Origin: a virus
IMG/VR virus record: IMGVR_UViG_3300046744_000160
Coordinates: 1-59,466 of that record
Strand: one strand, 5' to 3'
Length of the DNA: 59,466 nt
This document shows positions 15,601 to 29,193 of the stretch, piece by piece. A program made the translations under genes and the position numbers. Every line of letters begins with the position of its first letter. Position 1 is the stretch's first letter. The notes under the pieces were generated by a model. The model had not been told where the DNA came from, ran no database searches, and saw only the letters and a list, made by a program, of their open reading frames with translations.

Positions 15601-16051
15601 TTGCTGTGCCAAGGGCCAAGGCCCCGGAACCTGTTACCAAAAACGGATCAATAGTAGATATTTGTCCCGTGTCCGCGTCCTTTACACCTTCAAAACCCTG
15701 CGTTGCAGCAATGCCCGCAGCAAGCTGCTGCGAAGGTATCTGCTTAACCGCTTCTACAAACGCCTCTGCGGTATCTCCGGGGTCCTCCATAAACTGCCTG
15801 TAAAAGTCAATGCCACCTTGAACAATAGGAGGTAATGCCGCTTCGGCCTCCCCGTATGTTCCCTCAATAATTTCTCCCGGATAAACAACACCCATGTCTT
15901 CATAGGTGCTTTGGCTCCTTGGGGTTATTACAGGAAAACGAGTGGGGGACAGATATTCCGCGTAAATAGATTCAAGACCACCCAAAATGGGTACGTCTCT
16001 AAACTGTCTCAATTCTGGTGGGATGCCCTGATAGAAATCGTCTTCATCCAT
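12671..16051 (-). CDS. Large polyvalent-type virion protein with an HEXXH zincin site
   Basis: The 1126-residue protein lies between the large terminase and portal genes. Residues 348-352 read HEVQH in the context 'SVVFHEVQHAVQDIEGFPRGAS', the signature of a zinc metallopeptidase-like domain found in phage polyvalent proteins (LPD23-type associated domain, by memory). Ahead of it is 'GKPMIAVKDLDDAKEFQ'; after it come long, mostly helical segments with no further motif I can name, ending 'PYMVR'. Polyvalent proteins are thought to be packaged and injected with the DNA to act early in the cell. Its start overlaps the end of terL by eight bases. Confidence 0.65.
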   Translation of the reverse strand: MDEDDFYQGIPPELRQFRDVPILGGLESIYAEYLSPTRFPVITPRSQSTYEDMGVVYPGEIIEGTYGEAEAALPPIVQGGIDFYRQFMEDPGDTAEAFVEAVKQIPSQQLAAGIAATQGFEGVKDADTGQISTIDPFLVTGSGALALGTAKSIARTAGDGGTVLGIMGGRRSKTGAAREKTALSLRAMGKSADDIFRSVKGYFDDAIFGAPTSSMSPGQEGFRFEIPTGNSSLRSEAVGKKNVEYGTGEAFGLDDSYRKGVFIENGALVTLGGRALTLDEVVDFPELFDEYPQLRDIEVIRLTANEGESPFDIPSAAYIDAAESPSGKPMIAVKDLDDAKEFQSVVFHEVQHAVQDIEGFPRGASAAQIYEMLEERFPEAAAKNPQALRRYAIQAYETVYGEGEARAVQRRLENPEEALLNPVDSLRKEISERETSMNELDVVDRVEDIDEALEPYLEYGIGPFGPLLGGGQEARKPDPVTIRSLGGGSGGIRGLAHGSKYMGMDVKVPDNLEDLIFGGSKRGPDSFGRNMPPLAAPVDKYTIDPSRIADLASREKVDVTELLENFGFSNRIRDAFGQGAAASAEKGRPGFSLGTDASVSYRDFTGRGSDNYVPRIERMLAVEPQKKGYKATGKFDDQTGEPIYEYKDITMQDVEDLSPAAYLVTAYNPEKPFSKKPNSEYIESEIHIHEDLSHGMKPRQLTQRESQDVLATAEYELKALTALDSARKSFGTTFGSTVGDPNRQNIPLDQALKQFDLAVNAPTPLGPKTRSIIDNGIYNTATELSLPMGMKTTVERDRIINNYGDAGQNLLDSLENFRLRTNSTKSDKVKDAVRAEALELQRTLIDDSVKGDSRKFLDLLSVDQRNGLEIGLPTKYEYKFLSLMNARRANDPQELKRLTDEITSGEYPAWEAISFIADDGFLSFKGMPGSPVKKVENNLSPLRADVFDVPFEVKNQIRRLTNTDIGRVSREDFLKDVNATVPAGYADLVMQLFDTRHARKVAFANSINKGPEAQKFNESFSLLKSARRDVEDALRRVAAIDPIRGTGYLPARIEASSDLMTAGKKIVEARKTGLFGGENKGAAQLLEEAREAVKKATVGPRPGAQLYEEGGAVNSGIAEFVPYMVR

Positions 16052-17501
16052 AATATGCGCGGACCCTTGTGTACTTTTCTTCGTCTATGTCCCAATCATC
16101 AGACGGCAAAGACACAAAGTTGCCCTGTCGGTAACGCATAAGAGCCTGTGTCATGCTATCCACAAGGTCATCATACTCGCCATTTGGAAAAGCCGCAACT
16201 TCCTCTATCATCTCGTCAGCAAACGGGTCGTCCGTGGCATACACCATCCCCGCTTCAAACATAGGTGAAACAGAATGTACGCGAGACACCTTGTCCGTTC
16301 CGCGAGACGGGGTAAAGTTCACAACAGGAATACCCATATTGCGTAATTCTTGGGTCAAAGGGGTCCCTGAAGCCTTCGCTTCAATGATTACCGTGTCAGG
16401 TTCCCAAAAGTTATAGTTCTCAAAAGCTACCTGCTTCAATTCAGGAAAATCCCACCGCCCCTTCTTGCTGTCCAACAAAATAAGCGCAGGGGGACCCCCC
16501 GCTTCTTCCGGCCTGAACACGCCCCACGTCGTTATCGCAGAATAATCCGCCGTCTCCTTCTTGGAAAACGCCGTGTCGTAACTCTGAATTACATACTCAA
16601 GACTAGGTACCTCACGCTTCTCCCACTTCTTCCACCACTCACGAGGAATAATCGCATTCTCATCACCCGTTGGGCGCTGCTGATACTGCGCGTTCCATTT
16701 GGAGGGCGGGATCGACGCCTTCACCCGTTCAAGATCGTCCTTTGACCAAAACTCCGGCCAACAAGGTTCCTCATCGTCCATGATGGCAGGCAGTTCTACA
16801 ATCTCCCACTGATCTGCCTTCGGGTCCTGACCCATCTTCTTGATCAATTGACCCGTCAAATCCTTCTGCGACCACCGGGTCATAACCAAAATAATCGCAC
16901 CACCCGGCTGCAAACGCTGACGAGGGCCACCAGTGTACCAATCCCAGTCATTATCAAAACCAGACGCACTCATCGCCGTCTGCTCAGAATGGGGATCGTC
17001 AATAATAATTAAATCACCACCACGGCCCGCGAGGTTTGAGCCAACACCAACAGCATAATACATGCCACCGCGAGACGTATCCCAACGACCCGAAGCTTTA
17101 CTGTCCGCCGACAACGTGGCTTCAGGAAAAATCTCTGTATAATCCTCGCGTTCAAGAAGGTTCTTGACCTTACGACCAAAAGATACCGCAAGTTCCGTAG
17201 TGTGCGTTGCCTGAATAATTTTCATACCGGGGTTTTGACCAATAAACCACGCAGGCAAAAGGTATGACGCGAACTCAGATTTAGTGTGACGAGGAGCCAT
17301 GTTGATAATCAATCTTTTCAGGGACCCGTCAGCCACCCTTTGGAACTTCTCCGCTATTATTTGATGGTGGGGCCCCGCAATAAACTCCGGCCAGATAGCT
17401 TTTACAAATGATAAAAAATCGTTTTGACAAGCTTCAATGCGATTTAGCTGCGCTAATCGTAATTGTAACTTAACGGCTTGTTCTTGGACATCTGAACTCA
17501 T
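16044..17501 (-). CDS. terL: Terminase large subunit
   Basis: The 485-residue protein has the packaging-motor ATPase and nuclease motifs. These are a Walker A-like 'APRHTKSE' (residues 69-76), 'QATHTTELAVSFGRKV' (motif II region), Walker B 'DLIIIDDP' (163-170), a coupling motif 'ILVMTRW', and an RNase H-like nuclease with 'QSYDTAFSKKETADYSA', 'VIIEAKASG' and 'YDDLVDSMTQAL'. It pumps DNA into the head and cuts it. The gene is first in the leftward head operon. Its ATG is preceded by a G-rich AGGGTCCCCC and a CTTATACT box 31 bases upstream. The small subunit gene is about 4 kb upstream on the same strand rather than adjacent. Confidence 0.92.
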   Translation of the reverse strand: MSSDVQEQAVKLQLRLAQLNRIEACQNDFLSFVKAIWPEFIAGPHHQIIAEKFQRVADGSLKRLIINMAPRHTKSEFASYLLPAWFIGQNPGMKIIQATHTTELAVSFGRKVKNLLEREDYTEIFPEATLSADSKASGRWDTSRGGMYYAVGVGSNLAGRGGDLIIIDDPHSEQTAMSASGFDNDWDWYTGGPRQRLQPGGAIILVMTRWSQKDLTGQLIKKMGQDPKADQWEIVELPAIMDDEEPCWPEFWSKDDLERVKASIPPSKWNAQYQQRPTGDENAIIPREWWKKWEKREVPSLEYVIQSYDTAFSKKETADYSAITTWGVFRPEEAGGPPALILLDSKKGRWDFPELKQVAFENYNFWEPDTVIIEAKASGTPLTQELRNMGIPVVNFTPSRGTDKVSRVHSVSPMFEAGMVYATDDPFADEMIEEVAAFPNGEYDDLVDSMTQALMRYRQGNFVSLPSDDWDIDEEKYTRVRAYYG

Positions 17502-21015: not shown

Positions 21016-21450
21016 CTATAAAGGAAATGTCAAACGGAAAAAGTCAGACCATTGTGCGGGGTTTTTAAACTTATGCACGGGCTCGGTCAAAAGCCCGCTG
21101 CGGGCTACCATAATTGCTTGATCCCCGCCAAATACAAAAACATCTGCATTTTTATCGCGCACAAAAATATAGGTCGGAGCGTGTTGGTGTTGTGTCATCC
21201 ATGAGATTTGGTGAGGGGACAAACGGACAGATGCCGTTTTGGTGGTTTTAAGTTCTACAAAGTAAAATTTCCCCCGCTCGTCACATACGACAAGGTCGGG
21301 GACGCCTTGGGATGCCCAACTTTCCAAGCGGGTGAAAACAAGATCAGGTCGGAACTTTTTCTGATTTCTCTTTATTGCTTGGTAAAAGTCCGACTCCAGA
21401 TTTTTCTTCGGTCTTTTCTGTGGGCGTAATATTGATGACGGAAGCTCCAT
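21016..21450 (-). CDS. VRR-NUC-type nuclease (PD-(D/E)XK)
   Basis: The 144-residue protein carries the PD-(D/E)XK core as 'SQGVPDLVVCDERGKFYFVELKTTK': P51-D52, then E66-x-K68. An upstream helix has 'ESDFYQAIKRNQ'; 'SPHQISWM' and 'APTYIFVRDK' follow. Stand-alone VRR-NUC proteins of about 100-150 residues in phages cut branched DNA, acting as Holliday-junction resolvases or repair nucleases, and may clear replicated DNA for packaging. The start overlaps the small terminase gene by 107 bases, more than any other overlap between called genes here. Its ribosome site is weak. Confidence 0.8.
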   Translation of the reverse strand: MELPSSILRPQKRPKKNLESDFYQAIKRNQKKFRPDLVFTRLESWASQGVPDLVVCDERGKFYFVELKTTKTASVRLSPHQISWMTQHQHAPTYIFVRDKNADVFVFGGDQAIMVARSGLLTEPVHKFKNPAQWSDFFRLTFPL

Positions 21451-21925
21451 ATTGATCCGCTAAGTCCTTTAACGCTTTTTCTACTTCTTCCCGGCTCATA
21501 CTGTCGATAGAGCCATGCCGCACTTCGGATTTACTTATGTATATATCGCCTTGAGCTTGCCCACGGGCTTTCTCCGCCTGAACGGCTGCGGAGTATGCTC
21601 CGTCCTGCAAAGCTCTATCCCTGATCTTCTGAAGGTCGCGGATGTGCCGTCCATACGTCACCCGGTACTGTTCATCTAATTCTTTACGATAGCGCTTTAT
21701 TGCAGCTACAACATGAGGGTTCAGATTTGGGTTTGTTAATTCAGAAGCTTTAACAGAGGCGCTTTTTTCAGGATATCCTGCATTTAACGCGGCCTGCTTC
21801 TTTGTGATCATGCCATCGTGCGAAACAAATTCTTTTACAAAAGCGATTTGTCTTTCTGTCAGGGGTGTTTCTTCTGTCTTTCGCGGCCTTCCAAGCGGCT
21901 TTCGTTCTTTTTTAACAATCCTCAT
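21344..21925 (-). CDS. terS: Terminase small subunit
   Basis: The 193-residue protein (ATG 21925, five bases after AGGG; an earlier ATG lies at 21937) has the helix-turn-helix of the Terminase_2 family: 'LTERQIAFVKEFVSHDGMITKKQAALNAGYPEKSASVKASELTNP'. A basic 'KRYRKELDEQYRVTYGRHIRDLQKIRDRAL' and a long helix follow. Small terminases bind the packaging site and regulate the large subunit. The gene lies directly beside the TGTAAC palindrome block at 21938-22242. It is separated from terL by four genes on the same strand. Confidence 0.8.
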   Translation of the reverse strand: MRIVKKERKPLGRPRKTEETPLTERQIAFVKEFVSHDGMITKKQAALNAGYPEKSASVKASELTNPNLNPHVVAAIKRYRKELDEQYRVTYGRHIRDLQKIRDRALQDGAYSAAVQAEKARGQAQGDIYISKSEVRHGSIDSMSREEVEKALKDLADQYGASVINITPTEKTEEKSGVGLLPSNKEKSEKVPT

Positions 21926-21937
21926 GCCTGCCCTCAT

Positions 21938-22341
21938 TTAGATGAATTACCCCCAAAATCTATGATAACAGGGCCTACAAGGCAAGGTATTCAACAAATC
22001 AACCATATTTTGGTTAACCCAAATATGTTACATGTAACACAATATGCTACAGATTCTTCCTCTTTTATTATGCCAAAACAACAATGTAGCATTTGTTACA
22101 TTTTTCACACCGTGTTTTGCAGAAAAAAAAATAAAACTATTTTTCTGGCCTATATAAGAATTACGAAAGCCGGAAACCCTTGCTCACCAAGGGCTAGACC
22201 TGTAACTTTTTTGCTTTTTAATGGTGTAACAAAAGTTACACCCCGCTCTGTTTCCAGAACGAGGTGTTAAAACGTAACCAAACCTAACGGAGGAGATCCG
22301 TTGTCCGTGTACGTTACGCCCCTATATTTTGCCCGTCAAGC
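21938..22341. other. Non-coding block with TGTAAC palindromes
   Basis: No gene is supported over about 400 bases. The block holds six TGTAAC or GTTACA words between 22027 and 22240. Two palindromes stand back to back: a 22-base one centred on GGTTAACC (22005-22026, one mismatch) and the perfect GTTACATGTAAC (22027-22038). ATGCTACA at 22044-22051 pairs with TGTAGCAT at 22085-22092. Another perfect repeat, GGTGTAAC/GTTACACC around AAAA, is at 22223-22242, and a CCCTTG/CAAGGG hairpin is at 22177-22193. It lies upstream of terS and could be an operator cluster, a pac site or an origin. Confidence 0.6.
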
Positions 22342-22374
22342 AAAAAAAGTGGGCCAGTCCCGCAGAACTGGCCC
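22342..22374 (-). terminator. Rho-independent terminator
   Basis: Arms GGGCCAGT (22351-22358) and ACTGGCCC (22367-22374) pair perfectly around eight bases. Read leftward, they are followed by a seven-T run. It lies 30 bases after the stop of the gene at 22405-22788. Confidence 0.85.
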
Positions 22375-22404
22375 TGCCATCCCTACACAACTAAGGGTTG
22401 GCAA

Positions 22405-22788
22405 TTAAGCGGCGTCCTCTTCCATGTGCGCCTCATGCGATATCCGAAGCTGATTACACCAGTCTTTTTGAAACGCCTCATGCGTGAGTCGTTCATCTTT
22501 AGACGGTGTCATAGAGCTACGGGTCAACTTAAAGAAACCGACAGGAACAATTTTGTCGGCGTCTTCTGAGTGCCACGACAGGCAGCCCATGTCCGTGATA
22601 TTTATTCGATCAGTCGGACAGTACCAGACTTGAACGAACTGTGGGTAGTATGATGAGCCAAAAGCTTTTGCTGCATTGCGGGCAGCGGTCACCGGGTCGG
22701 TGGCCTTGGCCCATGTGCCGTGAATACCTGCGGTTGAAGCGAGGAAGGTCCCACCATTAGGCAAGACGTGGTCAAATGAATCAGTCAT
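22405..22788 (-). CDS. Protein of unknown function behind the inverted-repeat promoter
   Basis: The 127-residue protein begins MTDSFDHVLPNGGTFLASTAG and contains 'DPVTAARNAAKAFG', 'QFVQVWYCPTDRINITDMGCLSWHSED' and ends in an acidic tail. I do not recognise the family. An AAGGAG site precedes the ATG by seven bases. The 5' leader has two hairpins (22830-22848 and 22852-22867). It is the leftward partner of the divergent pair whose promoters lie in the inverted repeat at 22871-22999, so it is probably an early, regulated gene. A good terminator follows. Confidence 0.55.
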   Translation of the reverse strand: MTDSFDHVLPNGGTFLASTAGIHGTWAKATDPVTAARNAAKAFGSSYYPQFVQVWYCPTDRINITDMGCLSWHSEDADKIVPVGFFKLTRSSMTPSKDERLTHEAFQKDWCNQLRISHEAHMEEDAA

Positions 22789-22870
22789 AACTGACTCCTT
22801 TCGGAAGGTTGATTTACGTTTTAAACAGCGGCGGGTTGGTTAGACCCGCAGACGATCTTTTGATCGTTCT

Positions 22871-22999
22871 AAGAGTCTAACATATGGGATTAGTCCTGTA
22901 CATGTGACAAAATGTCGCAGGCTAAGTAGTTGATTTCATTGAATAATGGGTGCGACACTATGTCACATGGTCTTATATAGTCCCGTATGGTAGACTCTT
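22871..22999. promoter_or_regulatory. Divergent promoter region built as a 49-bp inverted repeat with paired operators
   Basis: Bases 22871-22919 and the reverse complement of 22951-22999 match at 37 of 49 positions. The best-kept parts are AAGAGTCTA, CATAtGGGAt and CATGTGACAnnnTGTCGCA (22901-22919 and, inverted, 22951-22969). The last is itself a near-palindrome, as expected of a dimeric repressor site. The right arm has a CTTATATAG box that could be a -10. The region separates the leftward gene at 22788 from the rightward one at 23087, so one regulator could control both. Confidence 0.65.
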
Positions 23000-23027
23000 A
23001 TTAGCTTCGGAATCTAACCGGAGCTTG

Positions 23028-23047
23028 AATGTTTCACGTGAAACATT
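23028..23047. promoter_or_regulatory. parS: parS-like ParB-binding site
   Basis: AATGTTTCACGTGAAACATT is a perfect 20-base palindrome. Its inner 16 bases, TGTTTCACGTGAAACA (23030-23045), equal the standard bacterial chromosomal parS sequence recognised by ParB (Spo0J). ParB loads there as a CTP-driven clamp and spreads along DNA. No ParA or ParB gene is visible in the window, so the likely binder is the host protein. The site lies in the leader of the rightward gene at 23087, 39 bases before its ATG and close to the paired operators. Confidence 0.85.
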
Positions 23048-23086
23048 CCGCTATTTGAAAACGTGAACCAAACAAAGGAGAAGGAT

Positions 23087-23341
23087 ATGCCTTCAATTGC
23101 AAATAACTTTGCGCGTGTCGAAGTTCCTGAAGAGCAGGCTAAAGTTGGAATAATTTGGGTCTGTCTTAATTCGGTGGATTTCACCGGGAACGACAAGGCG
23201 GTAAAAGAGCATCGCCGTTTGCTTCTGTCATATCGCCGGAAGATTTCGAAGCTCAACGACATTGAGCCCGCGCAGGTCGAAAGCGAAATGCTGGATCATT
23301 ACGAAGAGCTTAAAAAGCTTCGTAAGAAGTGGGCGGTGTAA
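23087..23341 (+). CDS. Small protein of unknown function downstream of the parS-like site
   Basis: I place the start at the ATG 23087, after AAAGGAG with seven bases between; a GTG at 23063 would put the ribosome site inside the gene. The 84-residue product begins MPSIANNFARVEVPEEQAKV, has 'VGIIWVCLNSVDF' and a basic, helical C-terminus 'HRRLLLSYRRKISKLNDIE' to 'YEELKKLRKKWAV'. The family is unknown to me. It is first in a two-gene rightward unit that ends at a strong terminator. Confidence 0.6.
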   Translation: MPSIANNFARVEVPEEQAKVGIIWVCLNSVDFTGNDKAVKEHRRLLLSYRRKISKLNDIEPAQVESEMLDHYEELKKLRKKWAV

Positions 23342-24378: not shown

Positions 24379-25230
24379 CTACATAAAATTCTTCGGTAAT
24401 GTGTGGTTTAGGCCGTAGAACTCTTCAGGCATCTTGTTGCCTTTGGACAGGTTTTCGCTGGCCGGGATGACTTGCAAATTCCACGGAACGTGCAGTCCGC
24501 ACACTCTGTCGTGAGTTAACGGATAATAATGATCAACGTGATGTTCAACGCCAGTCTCTTTCGTTAGGCGCTTCCGCTCTTCGTAAATCGGCACAAAGGA
24601 ATCCCAGTTTACCCATTTGACCTTTGCTTTTTTTCGTTTGTAGTGGCTTAATCGCCCCATAGCAGACACGCGCTCTTTGTTTTGGCTGGCCCACCTTCTA
24701 GCGTTGCGCCTAACTCTCTCCCGATCTTTTTCTGTGAAATTGGCACGGTATTTCGCGTCTTTACGCTTATAGTATTCAATGTTGTTTCGGTAATGCTGCG
24801 CCTTGCGCCGGAGATGTTCTTCCCGGTGCGGGGACTTTGGGTCCAAATATCTATCCCTCGCCCATTTCTTGCTATGCTCTACGTTTTCTTTCCTCCATTT
24901 TTCGCGGTAGGCTTTCGCCTCTGAGGTGCGTTGGCGCTCTGCCGCGCACTCGCAGCATTGTGCGCTTATGGTGAAACGCTCTGAGATATGCCCTTTCTTT
25001 TTGCAGGGCTTACCGTCGCTGTATCGCTTGAGACCTTTGGCCTTTGCAACGCCTCTTGGGCTTTTCGGATCTACTCTCTCATATCTATTTTCACGGACAC
25101 ACTCTATGCAGCCAAACGGCACTCCGACATATCTGTCACAGGTGTGGCCTCTATTGCAGGGTTTGCCTGTGTTAAATTTTTTCAACCCTTTCTCCACGGC
25201 TGCGTCTGACATTTCCCGAAGTGTAGGCAT
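24379..25230 (-). CDS. HNH endonuclease with two zinc-knuckle repeats
   Basis: The 283-residue protein has a duplicated N-terminal zinc module. The first is 'GKPCNRGHTCDRYVGVPFGC' to C44 (C25, H29, C41, C44). The second is 'GKPCKKKGHISERFTISAQC' to C95 (C76, H81, C92 or C93, C95). A highly basic helical linker follows, then an HNH core near residues 229-266, 'EHHVDHYYPLTHDRVCGLHVP' followed by 'WNLQVIPASENLSKGNK'. Such proteins cut DNA as free-standing homing-type or packaging nucleases. It leads a four-gene leftward unit with a good promoter at 25259-25287. Confidence 0.85.
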   Translation of the reverse strand: MPTLREMSDAAVEKGLKKFNTGKPCNRGHTCDRYVGVPFGCIECVRENRYERVDPKSPRGVAKAKGLKRYSDGKPCKKKGHISERFTISAQCCECAAERQRTSEAKAYREKWRKENVEHSKKWARDRYLDPKSPHREEHLRRKAQHYRNNIEYYKRKDAKYRANFTEKDRERVRRNARRWASQNKERVSAMGRLSHYKRKKAKVKWVNWDSFVPIYEERKRLTKETGVEHHVDHYYPLTHDRVCGLHVPWNLQVIPASENLSKGNKMPEEFYGLNHTLPKNFM

Positions 25231-25356: not shown

Positions 25357-25980
25357 ATGGCGAGAAAACCTTGGTCTGAAAAAGCTAAGAAGGCCCAATC
25401 GAAGCGTATCAAGAAGATGTGGGCGGATAAAAAGAAATCCAAAATAAAAGAGGCTTCGGCAACTTTGAAGCCAGTCAAAGAGGCTTACATTATGCCTCCT
25501 CCCGTTATCGTCGAGGAAAAGGTTGAAGAGCGTGATCTGAACACGGTCAGCGCGACGTGGGTGAAGTACCATCTCAAAGAGTGCATAAAGGAATGCACTA
25601 CAAAGGCGGAGATGACAAAGTATCTTGAGGACTCTATCGAAACGGTTGATCGGATTATGTCTGACGATAGAAAAGAGTCTCGTCGTCGTCACAAAGAGGA
25701 CGCTATCCACGACAATGTGACGGACGCTGAAATCTTGATCATCGGTGATGGTTACAACATCAACGGCATCCAAGAGCCACAACGCATAATGGGTTCAATA
25801 CCATTCTGGGTTCCTTACAACGTGTCGATGTTTGATCACTTGAGGGAAGATCCAGAAGCCCGTGAATGGTTCTTTGATGTTATGGGTTCTGCCCGTCAGG
25901 TCGCGGTAACAAACCACGGCTGGCCTGACCAGAACATTAGTGTGCAGGTCCGGTTTACGTTTACTCATGTGAACGGTTGA
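25357..25980 (+). CDS. Protein of unknown function with a lysine-rich N-terminus
   Basis: The 207-residue protein begins MARKPWSEKAKKAQSKRIKK and is strongly basic for about 35 residues. It then has 'LNTVSATWVKYHLKECIKECTTKAEMTKYLEDSIETVDRI' (helical, two Cys) and a compact end with 'DGYNINGIQEPQRIMGSIPFWVPYNVSMFDHLREDPEAREWFF'. The N-terminus could bind DNA. I know no family. It is first of a rightward three-gene unit with the methyltransferase-like gene; an AAAGGAG site lies seven bases before its ATG. Confidence 0.55.
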   Translation: MARKPWSEKAKKAQSKRIKKMWADKKKSKIKEASATLKPVKEAYIMPPPVIVEEKVEERDLNTVSATWVKYHLKECIKECTTKAEMTKYLEDSIETVDRIMSDDRKESRRRHKEDAIHDNVTDAEILIIGDGYNINGIQEPQRIMGSIPFWVPYNVSMFDHLREDPEAREWFFDVMGSARQVAVTNHGWPDQNISVQVRFTFTHVNG

Positions 25981-25984
25981 TCCA

Positions 25985-26569
25985 ATGGGACGCGAGAAGG
26001 ACGATTTTTACCCCACCCCGCCGGAAGCTGTCCGGGTTCTGATGAAGTTGATTGCTGAAGGAATAACCCTTCATTGTTACGACAAGGAAATCTGGGAGCC
26101 TGCCTGCGGGGATGGGGCTATATCTAAGATACTCGACATGGAATATGATCTCCGTGTCGAGTCCACCGATTTGGTGGACCGGGGTTACGGGACCGCAGGC
26201 GTTGATTTTCTGATGGAAACAAAGATGCCTGCCCCGTGGATTGTTACAAACCCGCCATATAGGTTGGCAAATGATTTTGTTAAGCACGGGCTCAACCTGC
26301 TTGCAAATGACGTCCACTCCCACGGCATGTGCATGTTTTTGCGTTTGTCCTTCTTGGAAGGTCAGAAGCGTTATGCTGAGATTTTTAAAGATCACCCGCC
26401 ATCTGATGTAATTGCTTTTAGCAAAAGGCTGACGCTATGGCGCGGGGACCAAGAACGGGCGGGCAATGGCACTACGGCTTATGCTTGGTTTGTGTGGATG
26501 CGGGATGGTAATTATGGAAGACGCCCGGAGTTGCATTGGGATGCAGACTTTGAAAGACTAGAAGAATAA
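25985..26569 (+). CDS. Adenine-specific DNA methyltransferase-like protein
   Basis: The 194-residue protein has the two hallmarks of N6-adenine methyltransferases: an AdoMet-binding motif 'WEPACGDGAISKIL' (about residues 37-50) and the catalytic 'NPPY' (89-92). It opens 'DDFYPTPPEAVRVLMKL', typical of phage Dam-like enzymes, and has 'VIAFSKRLTLWRGDQE' later. It would methylate adenine in phage DNA, probably to avoid host restriction. No recognition domain is visible at this size, so specificity is unknown. It follows the previous stop after four bases. Confidence 0.85.
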   Translation: MGREKDDFYPTPPEAVRVLMKLIAEGITLHCYDKEIWEPACGDGAISKILDMEYDLRVESTDLVDRGYGTAGVDFLMETKMPAPWIVTNPPYRLANDFVKHGLNLLANDVHSHGMCMFLRLSFLEGQKRYAEIFKDHPPSDVIAFSKRLTLWRGDQERAGNGTTAYAWFVWMRDGNYGRRPELHWDADFERLEE

Positions 26570-26584
26570 ACACGGAGTTACGTT

Positions 26585-26770
26585 ATGAATATAATTCATG
26601 GGCTTTCAAAATGTGATAAGTGTGATAACAAGGCCGACGCAAAGGAGGGTAATGCCCTCCTTTGCACGAAATGTTGGTTTAAGATGTACGCGAAGCATGA
26701 GACGCCTGCGGCTCTTCAGAGTCGCGTTGAGCGTATGGCGAATCTTCCTGCATCAACAAAGACGCTTTAA
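26585..26770 (+). CDS. Small zinc-ribbon protein
   Basis: The 61-residue protein begins MNIIHGLSKCDKCDNKADAK and has two Cys pairs, 'CDKC' (residues 10-13) and 'CTKC' (27-30), spaced as in a zinc ribbon, followed by a basic helix 'RVERMANLPASTKTL'. The gene contains a perfect 11-base-pair hairpin (26639-26665) whose left arm holds AAAGGAGG. Its last 92 bases overlap the leftward TSCPD-like gene, tail to tail. A GGAG precedes the start. A role in DNA binding is possible. Confidence 0.6.
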   Translation: MNIIHGLSKCDKCDNKADAKEGNALLCTKCWFKMYAKHETPAALQSRVERMANLPASTKTL

Positions 26771-26939
26771 CACCTAAATTATAAAGAGCCTCCTGCATAG
26801 GATTGTCGGAGGCTTTACCTCTTCCTGACATAAATACTTCTGCTGGACACCCTGTTTCGGGGTGATAGCTGACAGTTACAGAAAGACCCATTCCAACGTC
26901 TTCTGTTATACACGGCCTGCGATTAGGTAACTCAGACAT
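26679..26939 (-). CDS. Stand-alone TSCPD-like protein
   Basis: The 86-residue protein has 'LPNRRPCITEDVGMGLSVTVSYHP' and then 'GCPAEVFMSGRGKASDNPMQEALYNLGVKASLLMQE'. This resembles the TSCPD domain found at the end of class II ribonucleotide reductases and also as a free protein in phages ('V...GRP.EVF....K.GS.........LG...S..L'). The domain's role is poorly defined. No reductase gene is visible in the window. Its ATG follows GAGGAGG by four bases, and its 3' end overlaps the zinc-ribbon gene by 92 bases. Confidence 0.65.
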   Translation of the reverse strand: MSELPNRRPCITEDVGMGLSVTVSYHPETGCPAEVFMSGRGKASDNPMQEALYNLGVKASLLMQEDSPYAQRDSEEPQASHASRTS

Positions 26940-27005
26940 TTTGTCCTCCTCTTTTATAAGTTATCCATCGTAAGGAGAACATTTAAGAAAAAACAGTCTT
27001 GACCT

Positions 27006-27164
27006 TTATCGTTTTTTTACTTCATAGCCTTCAGCTTTACAGAAGACATCAAAGATCACTTTAAGCTGCCCGGAAATACTTCTGTTTTCCATGTCAGCAA
27101 TCATCTTGATGCCCTTGTATATATCAATCGGAACTACGATTGATTTCCATTTAGAAACATTCAT
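27006..27164 (-). CDS. Small ribbon-helix-helix-like DNA-binding protein
   Basis: Read by hand: ATG at 27164 after a GAGGG site, TAA at 27008-27006, 52 residues. The start MNVSKWKSIVVPIDIYKGIK has the short beta strand and first helix of Arc/MetJ-type repressors, and 'MENRSISGQLKVIFDVFC' gives the N-cap serine and second helix. These proteins bind operator DNA as dimers by a two-strand beta sheet. It stands alone between the TSCPD-like gene and the polymerase terminator, and is the only plausible transcriptional regulator I found. It could act on the paired operators at 22871-22999 or on the TATGGGATTAGTC elements. Confidence 0.65.
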   Translation of the reverse strand: MNVSKWKSIVVPIDIYKGIKMIADMENRSISGQLKVIFDVFCKAEGYEVKKR

Positions 27165-27229
27165 AACACCCTCGTTAGTGACTGTGTATTACAAGAGAAT
27201 ATAGGACTTTATGCACCTAAATACAAGGC

Positions 27230-27256
27230 AAAAAAAGGCCCCGCACAAGGCGGGGC
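27230..27256 (-). terminator. Rho-independent terminator after the DNA polymerase gene
   Basis: Arms GCCCCGC (27238-27244) and GCGGGGC (27250-27256) pair perfectly around a five-base loop. Read leftward, a run of seven T follows. The hairpin ends the transcript of the replication block, 36 bases after the polymerase stop codon. Confidence 0.88.
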
Positions 27257-27291
27257 AGGAGACGATAACCGTCTGGGAGGAAGCACTATGA

Positions 27292-29193
27292 TCACATTGA
27301 ACCGCCCCAAGAGGGGCCCATCTCAATATCCGTCTTCATAGGCACTTTTAGTTGTATCGCATTGCACATTGTTTCAGCAAGTTTTTTCGCTTCTTCTTCA
27401 CTTTTTACGCTAAAGGCCAACTCGTCATGCACTTGCAGTAAAGGCAGTGTCCCTTCCTTGTACAGGTCAACCATAGCTTTCTTGGTCATGTCTGCTGCTG
27501 ACGCCTGTATGAGACGATTAAGAGCTTTGTAGGCGTATGCTCGTTGCAGGCTGACGTTAGGCCCGTAGTGCGCTATTGCCTCGTCGTAGGTCATGGTCTT
27601 GTGCATACCAAAAGCCTTTGGTTCAAAATGTGGGAAACGGCACTTGCGCCCAAGAAGAGAGCGAATCGAACCTTCAGAGTTACCGTTCTGCACCCGGTCC
27701 TGCACCGCCCGCATTAACTTTTTAACGAAAGGAACCCGGTGGTCATATTGTTCCATAAGCTCTTTGGCTTCTTCCTTTGACAGATCTAGCTGATCAGAAA
27801 GCTTGCCTACGCCCATGCCATACATCATACCCAGATTGATTGTTTTAGCCTGTTTACGAGGGATGTCTGCCATACCTGCGACCATGTCGTGAAAGTCCAT
27901 GTCTGGGTCATTAGTGTACCCGTCAACAAATTTATCGACCTTTGGCATATCCAAGCCTGTGCCGTCCTGATAAGCAGCGGCAAAGTGAACCAAGATCCGT
28001 GGTTCCTGTTGCGAGTAGTCGATAGACGCCCACTGTTCACCTTCTTCTGGCATAAAGACTGACCGGATCATCGGTCCAAGGTCCGGGTGCCGTGCAGGAA
28101 TTTGCTGTAAGTTCGGGTTGGACATAGAGATCCGCCCACTGACGGTGCCCCCGTCATCGGATCTGATCTGGTTTATATGCCCGTGAATGCGGTTGTCTTT
28201 ACCGACATGCTTCATCAAGCCGTCCATGAAGGTATTCTTGCTTTTGTTATACTCACGGGCCTGCAAGATGCTCTTGGCAAGCTCATGGTTATGCGTAGCC
28301 AAAAAGCCTTTGGTAAAAGACGGAGCGCCCTTGTCTGTCTTTGGGTAAGGTATACTCAAGCTGTCAAAAGCATCGGCTATGGATTTAGCTGCCCATATCT
28401 CCACGTTGAACCCTGTCAGGTCCTTGATCCGCGATAAGGCTTTCTTTTCTTCTTTGAGCATAAACTGTGATGCGCGTTCTATGGCGTCGATGTCTACGCG
28501 AATACCCCGCAGTGTCATGTCCACCAAGCACGGTAGAAGATCACGCTCTAGTTCAAAGACGGTTGAGAGCCCTTGATTATTGACCTGCACCTTAAAATAT
28601 TTCCAAAGCTCCAACGTAAGGTCTGCGTCTGCGGTTGCGTATTCGCCCACAAACATTGCGGGCATCTTCCACATTTCGGCCTTGGGGTCTAAGCCAAAGC
28701 TTTTTGCAGCTTCGACTAATCCCTTCTCTGATTTGGTTTTGTTGATATGATCATAGCACACAGAGTTAAGGCTGAAGCTAAATCTGTTTTCATCCAAAAG
28801 AGCCGCAACTACCATCGTATCGACGATATTGCCGTTTACCTCAAACCCCTCTGCCTTGAGCCAGCCAAGATCATACTGTGCATTGTGCATGATCTTATCG
28901 CCCGGAGAGGCCAACACCTTCTTCATCCAGTTGTTTACTATTCGCTTGTCTAGGTTACCCCCACCAAGATGCCCGATAGGAAGATAGCCGCTCCATCCAT
29001 CAACGGCCACAGCGTAGCCCACTATTTCCCCATCCCCGCGGGGCCAGCCGGGGCCCAGTGTTTTGATATTTGGGTCTCTGGTCTCAAGATCAATTGCGAT
29101 CTCTGCGCGATCTGTGATGTCAGGTAACTCAGATGGTGGAACCCAGTCGGTTTCTTTATTGAACATGACAAGCTGTAGCCCTTGCGGTTTCAT
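27292..29193 (-). CDS. DNA polymerase, family A, with 3'-5' exonuclease domain
   Basis: The 633-residue protein has an N-terminal exonuclease domain with 'AEIAIDLETRDPN' (Exo I), 'MHNAQYDLGWL' (Exo II region) and 'ATADADLTLELW' (Exo III region). The polymerase motifs follow: A 'SIDYSQQEPRILVHFA' (about residue 390), B 'AKTINLGMMYGMG' (about 450) and C 'QVHDELAF' (about 588). It copies the phage genome. The size is usual for phage polymerases lacking the 5'-3' exonuclease domain. Motif A has Gln-Glu-Pro where many enzymes have Ile-Glu-Leu. The ATG overlaps the stop of the 63-residue gene, and a terminator follows the gene. Confidence 0.92.
   Translation of the reverse strand: MKPQGLQLVMFNKETDWVPPSELPDITDRAEIAIDLETRDPNIKTLGPGWPRGDGEIVGYAVAVDGWSGYLPIGHLGGGNLDKRIVNNWMKKVLASPGDKIMHNAQYDLGWLKAEGFEVNGNIVDTMVVAALLDENRFSFSLNSVCYDHINKTKSEKGLVEAAKSFGLDPKAEMWKMPAMFVGEYATADADLTLELWKYFKVQVNNQGLSTVFELERDLLPCLVDMTLRGIRVDIDAIERASQFMLKEEKKALSRIKDLTGFNVEIWAAKSIADAFDSLSIPYPKTDKGAPSFTKGFLATHNHELAKSILQAREYNKSKNTFMDGLMKHVGKDNRIHGHINQIRSDDGGTVSGRISMSNPNLQQIPARHPDLGPMIRSVFMPEEGEQWASIDYSQQEPRILVHFAAAYQDGTGLDMPKVDKFVDGYTNDPDMDFHDMVAGMADIPRKQAKTINLGMMYGMGVGKLSDQLDLSKEEAKELMEQYDHRVPFVKKLMRAVQDRVQNGNSEGSIRSLLGRKCRFPHFEPKAFGMHKTMTYDEAIAHYGPNVSLQRAYAYKALNRLIQASAADMTKKAMVDLYKEGTLPLLQVHDELAFSVKSEEEAKKLAETMCNAIQLKVPMKTDIEMGPSWGGSM

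What the first reader, a model, noticed from the sequence alone, without database searches (positions are those of the whole stretch)
23028..23047. A perfect chromosomal-type parS site in a phage with no visible partition genes
AATGTTTCACGTGAAACATT is a 20-base perfect palindrome whose inner 16 bases equal the consensus ParB (Spo0J) site of bacterial chromosomes. No ParA or ParB is encoded in the window. The phage may therefore use host ParB: to silence or activate the nearby early gene by ParB spreading, to keep its DNA near the origin or pole, or to compete with host parS sites. A 16-base match by chance in 60 kb is very unlikely. The site lies between a paired-operator promoter and a small rightward gene.
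Basis: partly seen in the sequence, partly recalled or inferred. Interest (0 to 1): 0.88.

Follow-up and report, generated by a model that had tools for sequence, protein, structure and literature searches.

The report
Marine phages carrying host centromere site
A family of apparently lytic marine phages repeatedly keeps an exact copy of the DNA site (parS) that bacteria use to pull their own chromosomes apart, at changing places in the genome and without the proteins that read it, so these viruses very probably borrow the host's chromosome-segregation machinery, as so far known only for the Bacillus phage phi29.

Summary
Confirmed, and stronger than claimed. TGTTTCACGTGAAACA lies at 23030-23045, inside a 22-bp perfect palindrome. 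The window (59.5 kb) is a near-complete podovirus; its nearest isolates are pelagiphages HTVC027P and HTVC023P. Neither it nor any parS-bearing relative tested has ParB; no ParA or integrase was found in the 16 records tested for those. In 1.12 Mb fetched by TerL similarity alone, exact parS occurs 32 times; 209 same-composition control palindromes occur 0 times. About 45 of 120 IMG/VR contigs with exact parS belong to this family. The site moves: terL leader, terS region, terL-portal gaps, between a stop and the next start codon, and inside genes, always read VSRET. Flanks are 32-55% identical, parS 100%. This pattern fits selection for parS itself, not for a neighbour's operator. SAR11 genomes, hosts of the isolates, carry at most one parS per assembly at mnmG-rsmG-parA-parB. 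Best reading: host ParB loads on phage DNA, which is then positioned or partitioned with the nucleoid. Binding is very likely (about 0.9, inferred); the benefit (partition, titration, or promoter silencing) is open. The precedent is phi29, which carries four parS-like sites and exploits Spo0J. I classify this as a new variant: apparently lytic, non-sporulating marine hosts, family-wide.

The parts
23027..23048 (.). 22-bp perfect palindrome containing the parS consensus TGTTTCACGTGAAACA (23030-23045)
   Evidence: conserved in relatives
23049..23086 (+). leader between parS and the start codon: CGCTATTTGAAA..CGT..AACCAAACAA then GGAG, conserved in group A relatives although the downstream genes differ
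   Evidence: alignment
22903..22919 (.). operator-like inverted repeat TGTGACAAAATGTCGCA (left member of the pair)
   Evidence: present next to parS in several relatives
22951..22967 (.). operator-like inverted repeat TGCGACACTATGTCACA (right member)
22870..23000 (.). divergent symmetric promoter region: 50-nt arms 22870-22919 and 22951-23000, 76% complementary; inferred rightward start near 23001, which would put parS in the 5' leader
   Evidence: arms; one weak sigma-70 match, no more than expected by chance; start site inferred
23087..23341 (+). small rightward gene, 84 aa, no PHROG or Pfam match; replaced by unrelated genes in relatives
22405..22788 (-). leftward gene, 127 aa, unknown function
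   Evidence: 31% relative in G013
21344..21937 (-). terminase small subunit
   Evidence: PHROG 51, Pfam Terminase_2
16044..17501 (-). terminase large subunit, used to find relatives; in sister groups parS sits in its leader
   Evidence: PHROG 38

Best explanation
The sequence is a functional chromosomal-type parS site that docks host ParB on the phage genome. Shown: an exact consensus site, no phage ParB or ParA found, retention of the 16-mer across the phage family at shifting places, and the same site beside parAB in chromosomes of the hosts of related isolates. Inferred: after injection, host ParB (a CTP-dependent clamp) loads at the phage parS, slides over neighbouring phage DNA and brings ParA, and possibly SMC, to it. 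The cell then handles the phage genome like an origin region: held on the nucleoid, placed at a set position, and shared between daughters if lysis is delayed in a slow-growing host. This would be the phi29-Spo0J strategy transferred to non-sporulating marine bacteria.
For: Exact site, expected 1.6e-5. TerL-selected relatives: 32 exact parS in 1.12 Mb against 0 for 209 same-composition palindromes with the same central CG, and parS is the commonest 16-bp palindrome by tenfold. parS is 100% identical while 60-bp flanks are 32-55% identical; note that only loci with an exact site entered this comparison. Location class changes many times on the TerL tree (32 changes over 8 classes). Sites inside genes are all read VSRET, 9 of 9, in different proteins, the same peptide as at the SAR11 chromosomal site in rsmG. 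IMG/VR: at least 120 parS contigs against 5 and 5 for two control palindromes; about 45 of the 120 belong to this family. One to two sites per genome in close relatives, like a centromere. No ParB, ParA or integrase found. 14 of 20 SAR11 genomes have one parS each, and in the cases that can be compared it lies about 1.5 kb from parB. Precedent phi29: four 1-mismatch parS in its genome and Spo0J-dependent spore entrapment (Meijer 2005, as cited in PMC9437464).
Against: No binding or infection data. The host of this phage is unknown. parS is not universal in the family: isolates HTVC023P, 023Pt_psg01 and DSL-LC04 and several long relatives have none within 2 mismatches, and HTVC027P has only a 1-mismatch copy inside a nuclease gene. 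A lytic phage that lyses in hours has little obvious need of partition, and no latency genes were recognised.
Confidence: 0.5

Rival explanations
1. ParB as a transcriptional roadblock or copy-number switch: ParB loaded at parS silences the promoter or gene beside it while phage copies are few, and releases it when replicated phage genomes dilute ParB.
For: In groups A and B parS lies between promoter-like sequence and a start codon; in G003 and L039 two parS flank the operator-promoter. Native ParB represses genes next to intergenic parS3/parS4 in P. aeruginosa (PMC5521831).
Against: The neighbouring gene differs between close relatives and between groups: small unknown genes, terL, a structural gene. 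Some sites lie deep inside genes. Many chromosomal parS have little effect on transcription.
Confidence: 0.2
2. Titration or sabotage: replicated phage genomes outnumber the host's own site, strip ParB from the host origin, and stall host segregation or free resources.
For: At most one parS was found per SAR11 genome assembly, so even a few phage copies would exceed it. SGI1 carries stolen parS sites that destabilise its helper plasmid dose-dependently (PMC10954446). Some distant relatives carry arrays of 3-5 sites.
Against: Most genomes here keep only one site, whereas a decoy would be expected to favour arrays. Killing follows by lysis anyway.
Confidence: 0.2
3. The palindrome is an operator for a phage or host regulator other than ParB, or an RNA hairpin in a leader, that happens to equal parS.
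For: It sits in a promoter-leader region in the window and is a perfect inverted repeat.
Against: The identity is to the exact 16-bp ParB consensus. The same 16-mer occurs in genes, in terL leaders and in intercistronic gaps of relatives. No Rfam match. The CGTTTCACGTGAAACA variant seen in a relative (HTVC027P) also occurs as the sole parS-like site of a SAR11 genome.
Confidence: 0.05
4. Chance, or host DNA assembled into a viral contig.
For: Exact 16-mers occur somewhere in very large collections.
Against: Phage genes on both sides, conservation in tens of relatives, control palindromes absent.
Confidence: 0.01

Closest known systems
Bacillus phage phi29 (Salasvirus) exploiting host Spo0J/ParB (Meijer et al. 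2005; cited in PMC9437464)
   Same: Virulent phage without its own partition genes, with parS sites in its genome: phi29 has four TGTTTCACGTGGAACA and Goe23 has one exact site plus three 1-mismatch sites. Host ParB acts on phage DNA.
   Different: phi29 uses it to enter the spore of a Gram-positive host, with Spo0A blocking lysis. Here the hosts, judging from the isolates, are non-sporulating marine bacteria; the phages are unrelated podoviruses; the site is usually single and moves through the family.
SGI1 hijacking the IncC plasmid parABS with its own parS copies (PMC10954446)
   Same: A mobile element carries only the centromere and borrows another replicon's ParA/ParB; dose-dependent incompatibility.
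   Different: The helper is a plasmid and the parS type is plasmid-specific; SGI1 is an integrative element, not a lytic virus.
Phage-plasmids with full parABS (P1, N15 and similar)
   Same: ParB-parS on phage DNA.
   Different: They encode their own ParA/ParB and plasmid-type sites; none was found here.
HTVC023P/HTVC027P-type pelagiphages and DSL-LC04
   Same: Nearest isolates: TerL 55-61%, PolA 48-54% identical, 58-62 kb, similar gene content.
   Different: Those four isolates lack an exact parS; the HTVC023P-type paper PMC9599517 does not contain the words parS or ParB.
CtrA-box alphaproteobacterial phages with proposed lytic deferment (PMC9437464)
   Same: Lytic phages carrying binding sites of a host cell-cycle regulator.
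   Different: A transcription factor rather than the segregation protein.

Membership tests
Chromosomal parS site | 16-bp consensus TGTTTCACGTGAAACA, palindromic | tested here: met
   exact
Chromosomal parS site | the same sequence is used by chromosomes of plausible hosts, beside parAB | tested here: met
   SAR11 (hosts of related isolates): 14/20 genomes with one site within 1 mismatch, 17/20 with ParB; in one locus read in full the site is in rsmG directly before parA. The host of this very phage is unknown.
Chromosomal parS site | bound by ParB, nucleates spreading | not testable with these tools
   needs EMSA or ChIP
Self-contained parABS partition cassette (phage-plasmid) | parB gene in cis | tested here: not met
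   PF02195 absent from the window and every parS+ relative tested
Self-contained parABS partition cassette (phage-plasmid) | parA gene in cis | tested here: not met
   PF13614 and PF01656 absent in 16 records
phi29-type exploitation of host ParB | virulent phage with parS and no parB of its own | tested here: met
   no PF00589 integrase. Virulence itself inferred from gene content.
phi29-type exploitation of host ParB | phage DNA segregation depends on host ParB | not testable with these tools
   needs infected cells with and without ParB
phi29-type exploitation of host ParB | sporulating host, Spo0A-controlled lysis | not tested
   host unknown; not expected in marine Proteobacteria
HTVC023P/HTVC027P-type podoviruses | shared TerL, PolA, primase, helicase, portal, MCP | tested here: met

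The most novel reading that the evidence does not exclude
A large family of marine lytic podoviruses has independently and repeatedly placed a host centromere in its genome so that host ParB/ParA/SMC partition or position infecting DNA. That would give a non-lysogenic phage a way to ride through division of slow-growing, non-sporulating cells. Scattered exact parS in unrelated phages (Lactobacillus phage Iacchus, Arthrobacter VroomVroom, Butyrivibrio Arian) would make this a general but overlooked phage strategy.
Probability: 0.35. Interest if true: 0.87.

Novelty: new variant of a known kind. Interest (0 to 1): 0.76.

Why it matters
Chromosome segregation by ParABS is almost universal in bacteria but is hardly considered in lytic infection outside phi29. 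A conserved host centromere in abundant marine phages makes testable how these viruses persist in, and spread through, slow-growing hosts such as SAR11, and offers a natural, non-engineered handle for watching phage DNA in infected cells through host ParB. It also gives an easy genome-wide marker (parS without parB) for finding other phages that use the host machinery.

Tried and rejected
Chance: rejected by control palindromes. Host contamination: rejected by synteny. Phage-encoded ParB/ParA: none found. Operator of the adjacent gene only: that gene is not conserved. RNA element: no Rfam match. HTVC027P's 1-mismatch site: inside a VRR-NUC-like reading frame, so possibly chance; counted as weak. 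Post-capsid 2-mismatch site in G008 (and similar 1-2-mismatch matches at a like distance from terL in G009, G011): not counted. Host identification: TerL finds no relative in genome contigs and the window has no tRNA; host left open. TGTTTCATGTGAAACA is also frequent in IMG/VR, so 1-mismatch variants were not used as evidence. Location bias towards the terminase region (TerL in about 35 of 47 parS loci) is suggestive only, because short IMG/VR contigs are enriched in terminase genes. parS with or without parB in 50 other IMG/VR contigs: 46 lack PF02195, but many are fragments. Papers: 10 searches; no report of host-type parS in marine phages found; the 2005 phi29 paper itself is not in the library.

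Full report
WHAT IS THERE. The 16-bp ParB consensus TGTTTCACGTGAAACA is at 23030-23045, centred in a 22-bp perfect palindrome, 23027-23048, the longest perfect palindrome of the window (the next are 14 bp); the expected number of exact occurrences is 1.6e-5. It lies in the non-coding gap between a leftward 127-aa gene (22405-22788) and a rightward 84-aa gene (23087-23341), both of unknown function. The gap also holds two operator-like inverted repeats, TGTGACAAAATGTCGCA (22903-22919) and TGCGACACTATGTCACA (22951-22967), inside 50-nt arms that are 76% complementary. I read this as a symmetric divergent promoter whose rightward transcript would start near 23001, with parS in the leader; the start site is inferred, and the one sigma-70 match is no more than chance.

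WHAT CARRIES IT. The window is an IMG/VR virus record of 59,466 bases with terminase, portal, major head protein, DNA polymerase A, primase, helicases, endolysin and tail fibres. The nearest isolates are Pelagibacter phages HTVC027P and HTVC023P, phage 023Pt_psg01 and DSL-LC04 (TerL 55-61%, PolA 48-54% identical). ParB_N was not found in the window or in any parS-bearing relative tested. Integrase and ParA-type ATPases were not found in 16 records. The record G004 spans about a full genome: its two ends are diverged copies of one region. It has one parS and none of those genes.

CONSERVATION. Relatives were fetched by TerL alone, so they were not selected for parS. Close relatives (TerL 82-98%) have the exact site 5.2-6.8 kb upstream of terL, one or two copies; one (L175) has a 1-mismatch form, and two long ones (G008, G010) lack an exact site. 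In the alignment the 20-mer AATGTTTCACGTGAAACATT and a short leader (GCTATTTGAAA..AACCAAACAA) are kept while the genes that follow are unrelated. A sister group (TerL 77-80%) has the exact site 48-154 bp before the terL reading frame, in its leader; two more distant records have it exactly between a stop codon and the next start codon, 7.6-8.3 kb downstream of terL. In the whole TerL-selected set (1.12 Mb, 84 records, isolates included) exact parS occurs 32 times in 27 records. None of 209 palindromes made by shuffling the same half-site, keeping the central CG, occurs at all, and the next commonest 16-bp palindrome occurs three times. Sixty-base flanks are 32-55% identical between loci that have the site.

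FAMILY-WIDE TRAIT. About 45 of the 120 show homology and gene content of this phage family, down to TerL identities near 30%. There the site occurs in the terL leader, near terS and the VRR-NUC gene, between terL and portal, beyond portal, in arrays of 3-5, and inside genes. In nine loci checked, the in-gene site is read VSRET every time, in different proteins. On a TerL tree of 80 records the eight location classes need 32 changes (shuffled mean 48). The sample is partly selected for parS, so the tree speaks to movement of the site, not to its frequency. In a crude ORF survey 61 of 131 parS sites in the 120 contigs were intergenic, against 9% non-coding DNA. A site that keeps its 16 bases while changing neighbours, strand context and even reading context is what a DNA-binding target for one fixed protein looks like.

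THE HOST SIDE. The isolates' hosts are SAR11. In 20 SAR11 genomes fetched by a 16S probe, 14 have one parS within one mismatch, none has two, and 17 have one ParB. In those where both lie on the same contig with coordinates given, the two are about 1.5 kb apart. In the locus read in full, the site is in the 5' end of rsmG (NVSRETF), with mnmG upstream and parA directly downstream. One SAR11 genome has CGTTTCACGTGAAACA, the variant also present in HTVC027P, although in that phage the copy lies in a nuclease gene and may be chance. The host of the window phage itself was not found; at 44-52% G+C it is unlikely to be SAR11.

HOW IT PROBABLY WORKS. Shown: site, absence of recognised cognate genes, conservation with relocation, presence of the same site beside parAB in hosts of relatives. 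Inferred: host ParB loads at the phage parS, slides onto phage DNA and links it to ParA and the nucleoid. The benefit is undecided. (a) Positioning or partition, so that phage DNA stays with the nucleoid and is shared at division if lysis is deferred; this is the phi29 precedent. (b) Titration of ParB from what seems to be a single host site. (c) Silencing or copy-number gating of a neighbouring gene. I favour (a) because the site is usually single, its position is not tied to one gene, and a direct precedent exists. The weights I give are about 0.5, 0.2 and 0.2.

COMPARISON WITH KNOWN SYSTEMS. phi29 carries four TGTTTCACGTGGAACA, and its relative Goe23 one exact and three 1-mismatch sites; phi29 uses Spo0J for spore entrapment (Meijer et al. 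2005, as cited in PMC9437464; the 2005 paper itself could not be read). SGI1 carries stolen parS sites and uses its helper plasmid's ParA/ParB (PMC10954446). The present phages work like these but belong to neither: they are unrelated podoviruses, probably of non-sporulating marine hosts. No report of host-type parS in such phages was found in ten library searches; the HTVC023P-type paper PMC9599517 does not contain the words parS or ParB.

LIMITS. No binding data; host unknown; parS is not universal in the family; the library lacks many subscription papers, so earlier notice cannot be excluded.

Noticed in passing
window 22870-23000: Symmetric divergent promoter with two TGYGACANNATGTCRCA operators; the same operator sits next to parS in G003, G004 and L039. 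Regulator unknown.
   Followed up: partly
window 21938-22404: Non-coding stretch upstream of terS, rich in TGTTAC/GTAACA repeats, with a block (GTAACAAAAGTTACACCCCGCTCTG..CAGAACGAGGTG) conserved in G003, G004, G008 and G010, including relatives without parS; no Rfam match. Possibly a packaging or replication site or an RNA element.
   Followed up: partly
G003 (L127 region), 24899-24913: TTAGAATGATTCTAA beside parS resembles, from memory, the alphaproteobacterial Irr (iron) box; similar motifs in L014 and L105 near parS. Literature check found nothing usable.
   Followed up: partly
L017, L044, L053: Distant family members carry arrays of 3-5 exact parS within about 1 kb upstream of terL (further upstream in L053).
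   Followed up: partly
L084 7121 and L055 4730: Second parS inside a coding region downstream of terL, read as VSRET in a linker-like stretch.
   Followed up: yes
L489, L490, L491: Exact parS in Butyrivibrio virus Arian, Arthrobacter phage VroomVroom and (two copies) Lactobacillus phage Iacchus, all in gaps or near gene starts; parB not checked there.
   Followed up: partly
phages collection, bajarodino viruses: Microviridae-like records show 10-12 partial matches each to the parS 36-mer; not verified as parS.
   Followed up: no
L190 record (G022) 25528-28855: A parS-less relative encodes two small ParB_N-like stretches (134 and 117 aa frames).
   Followed up: no
L202 (HTVC027P) about 16300-16500: Apparently unannotated VRR-NUC-like reading frame in the HTVC027P record, containing the 1-mismatch parS.
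   Followed up: partly
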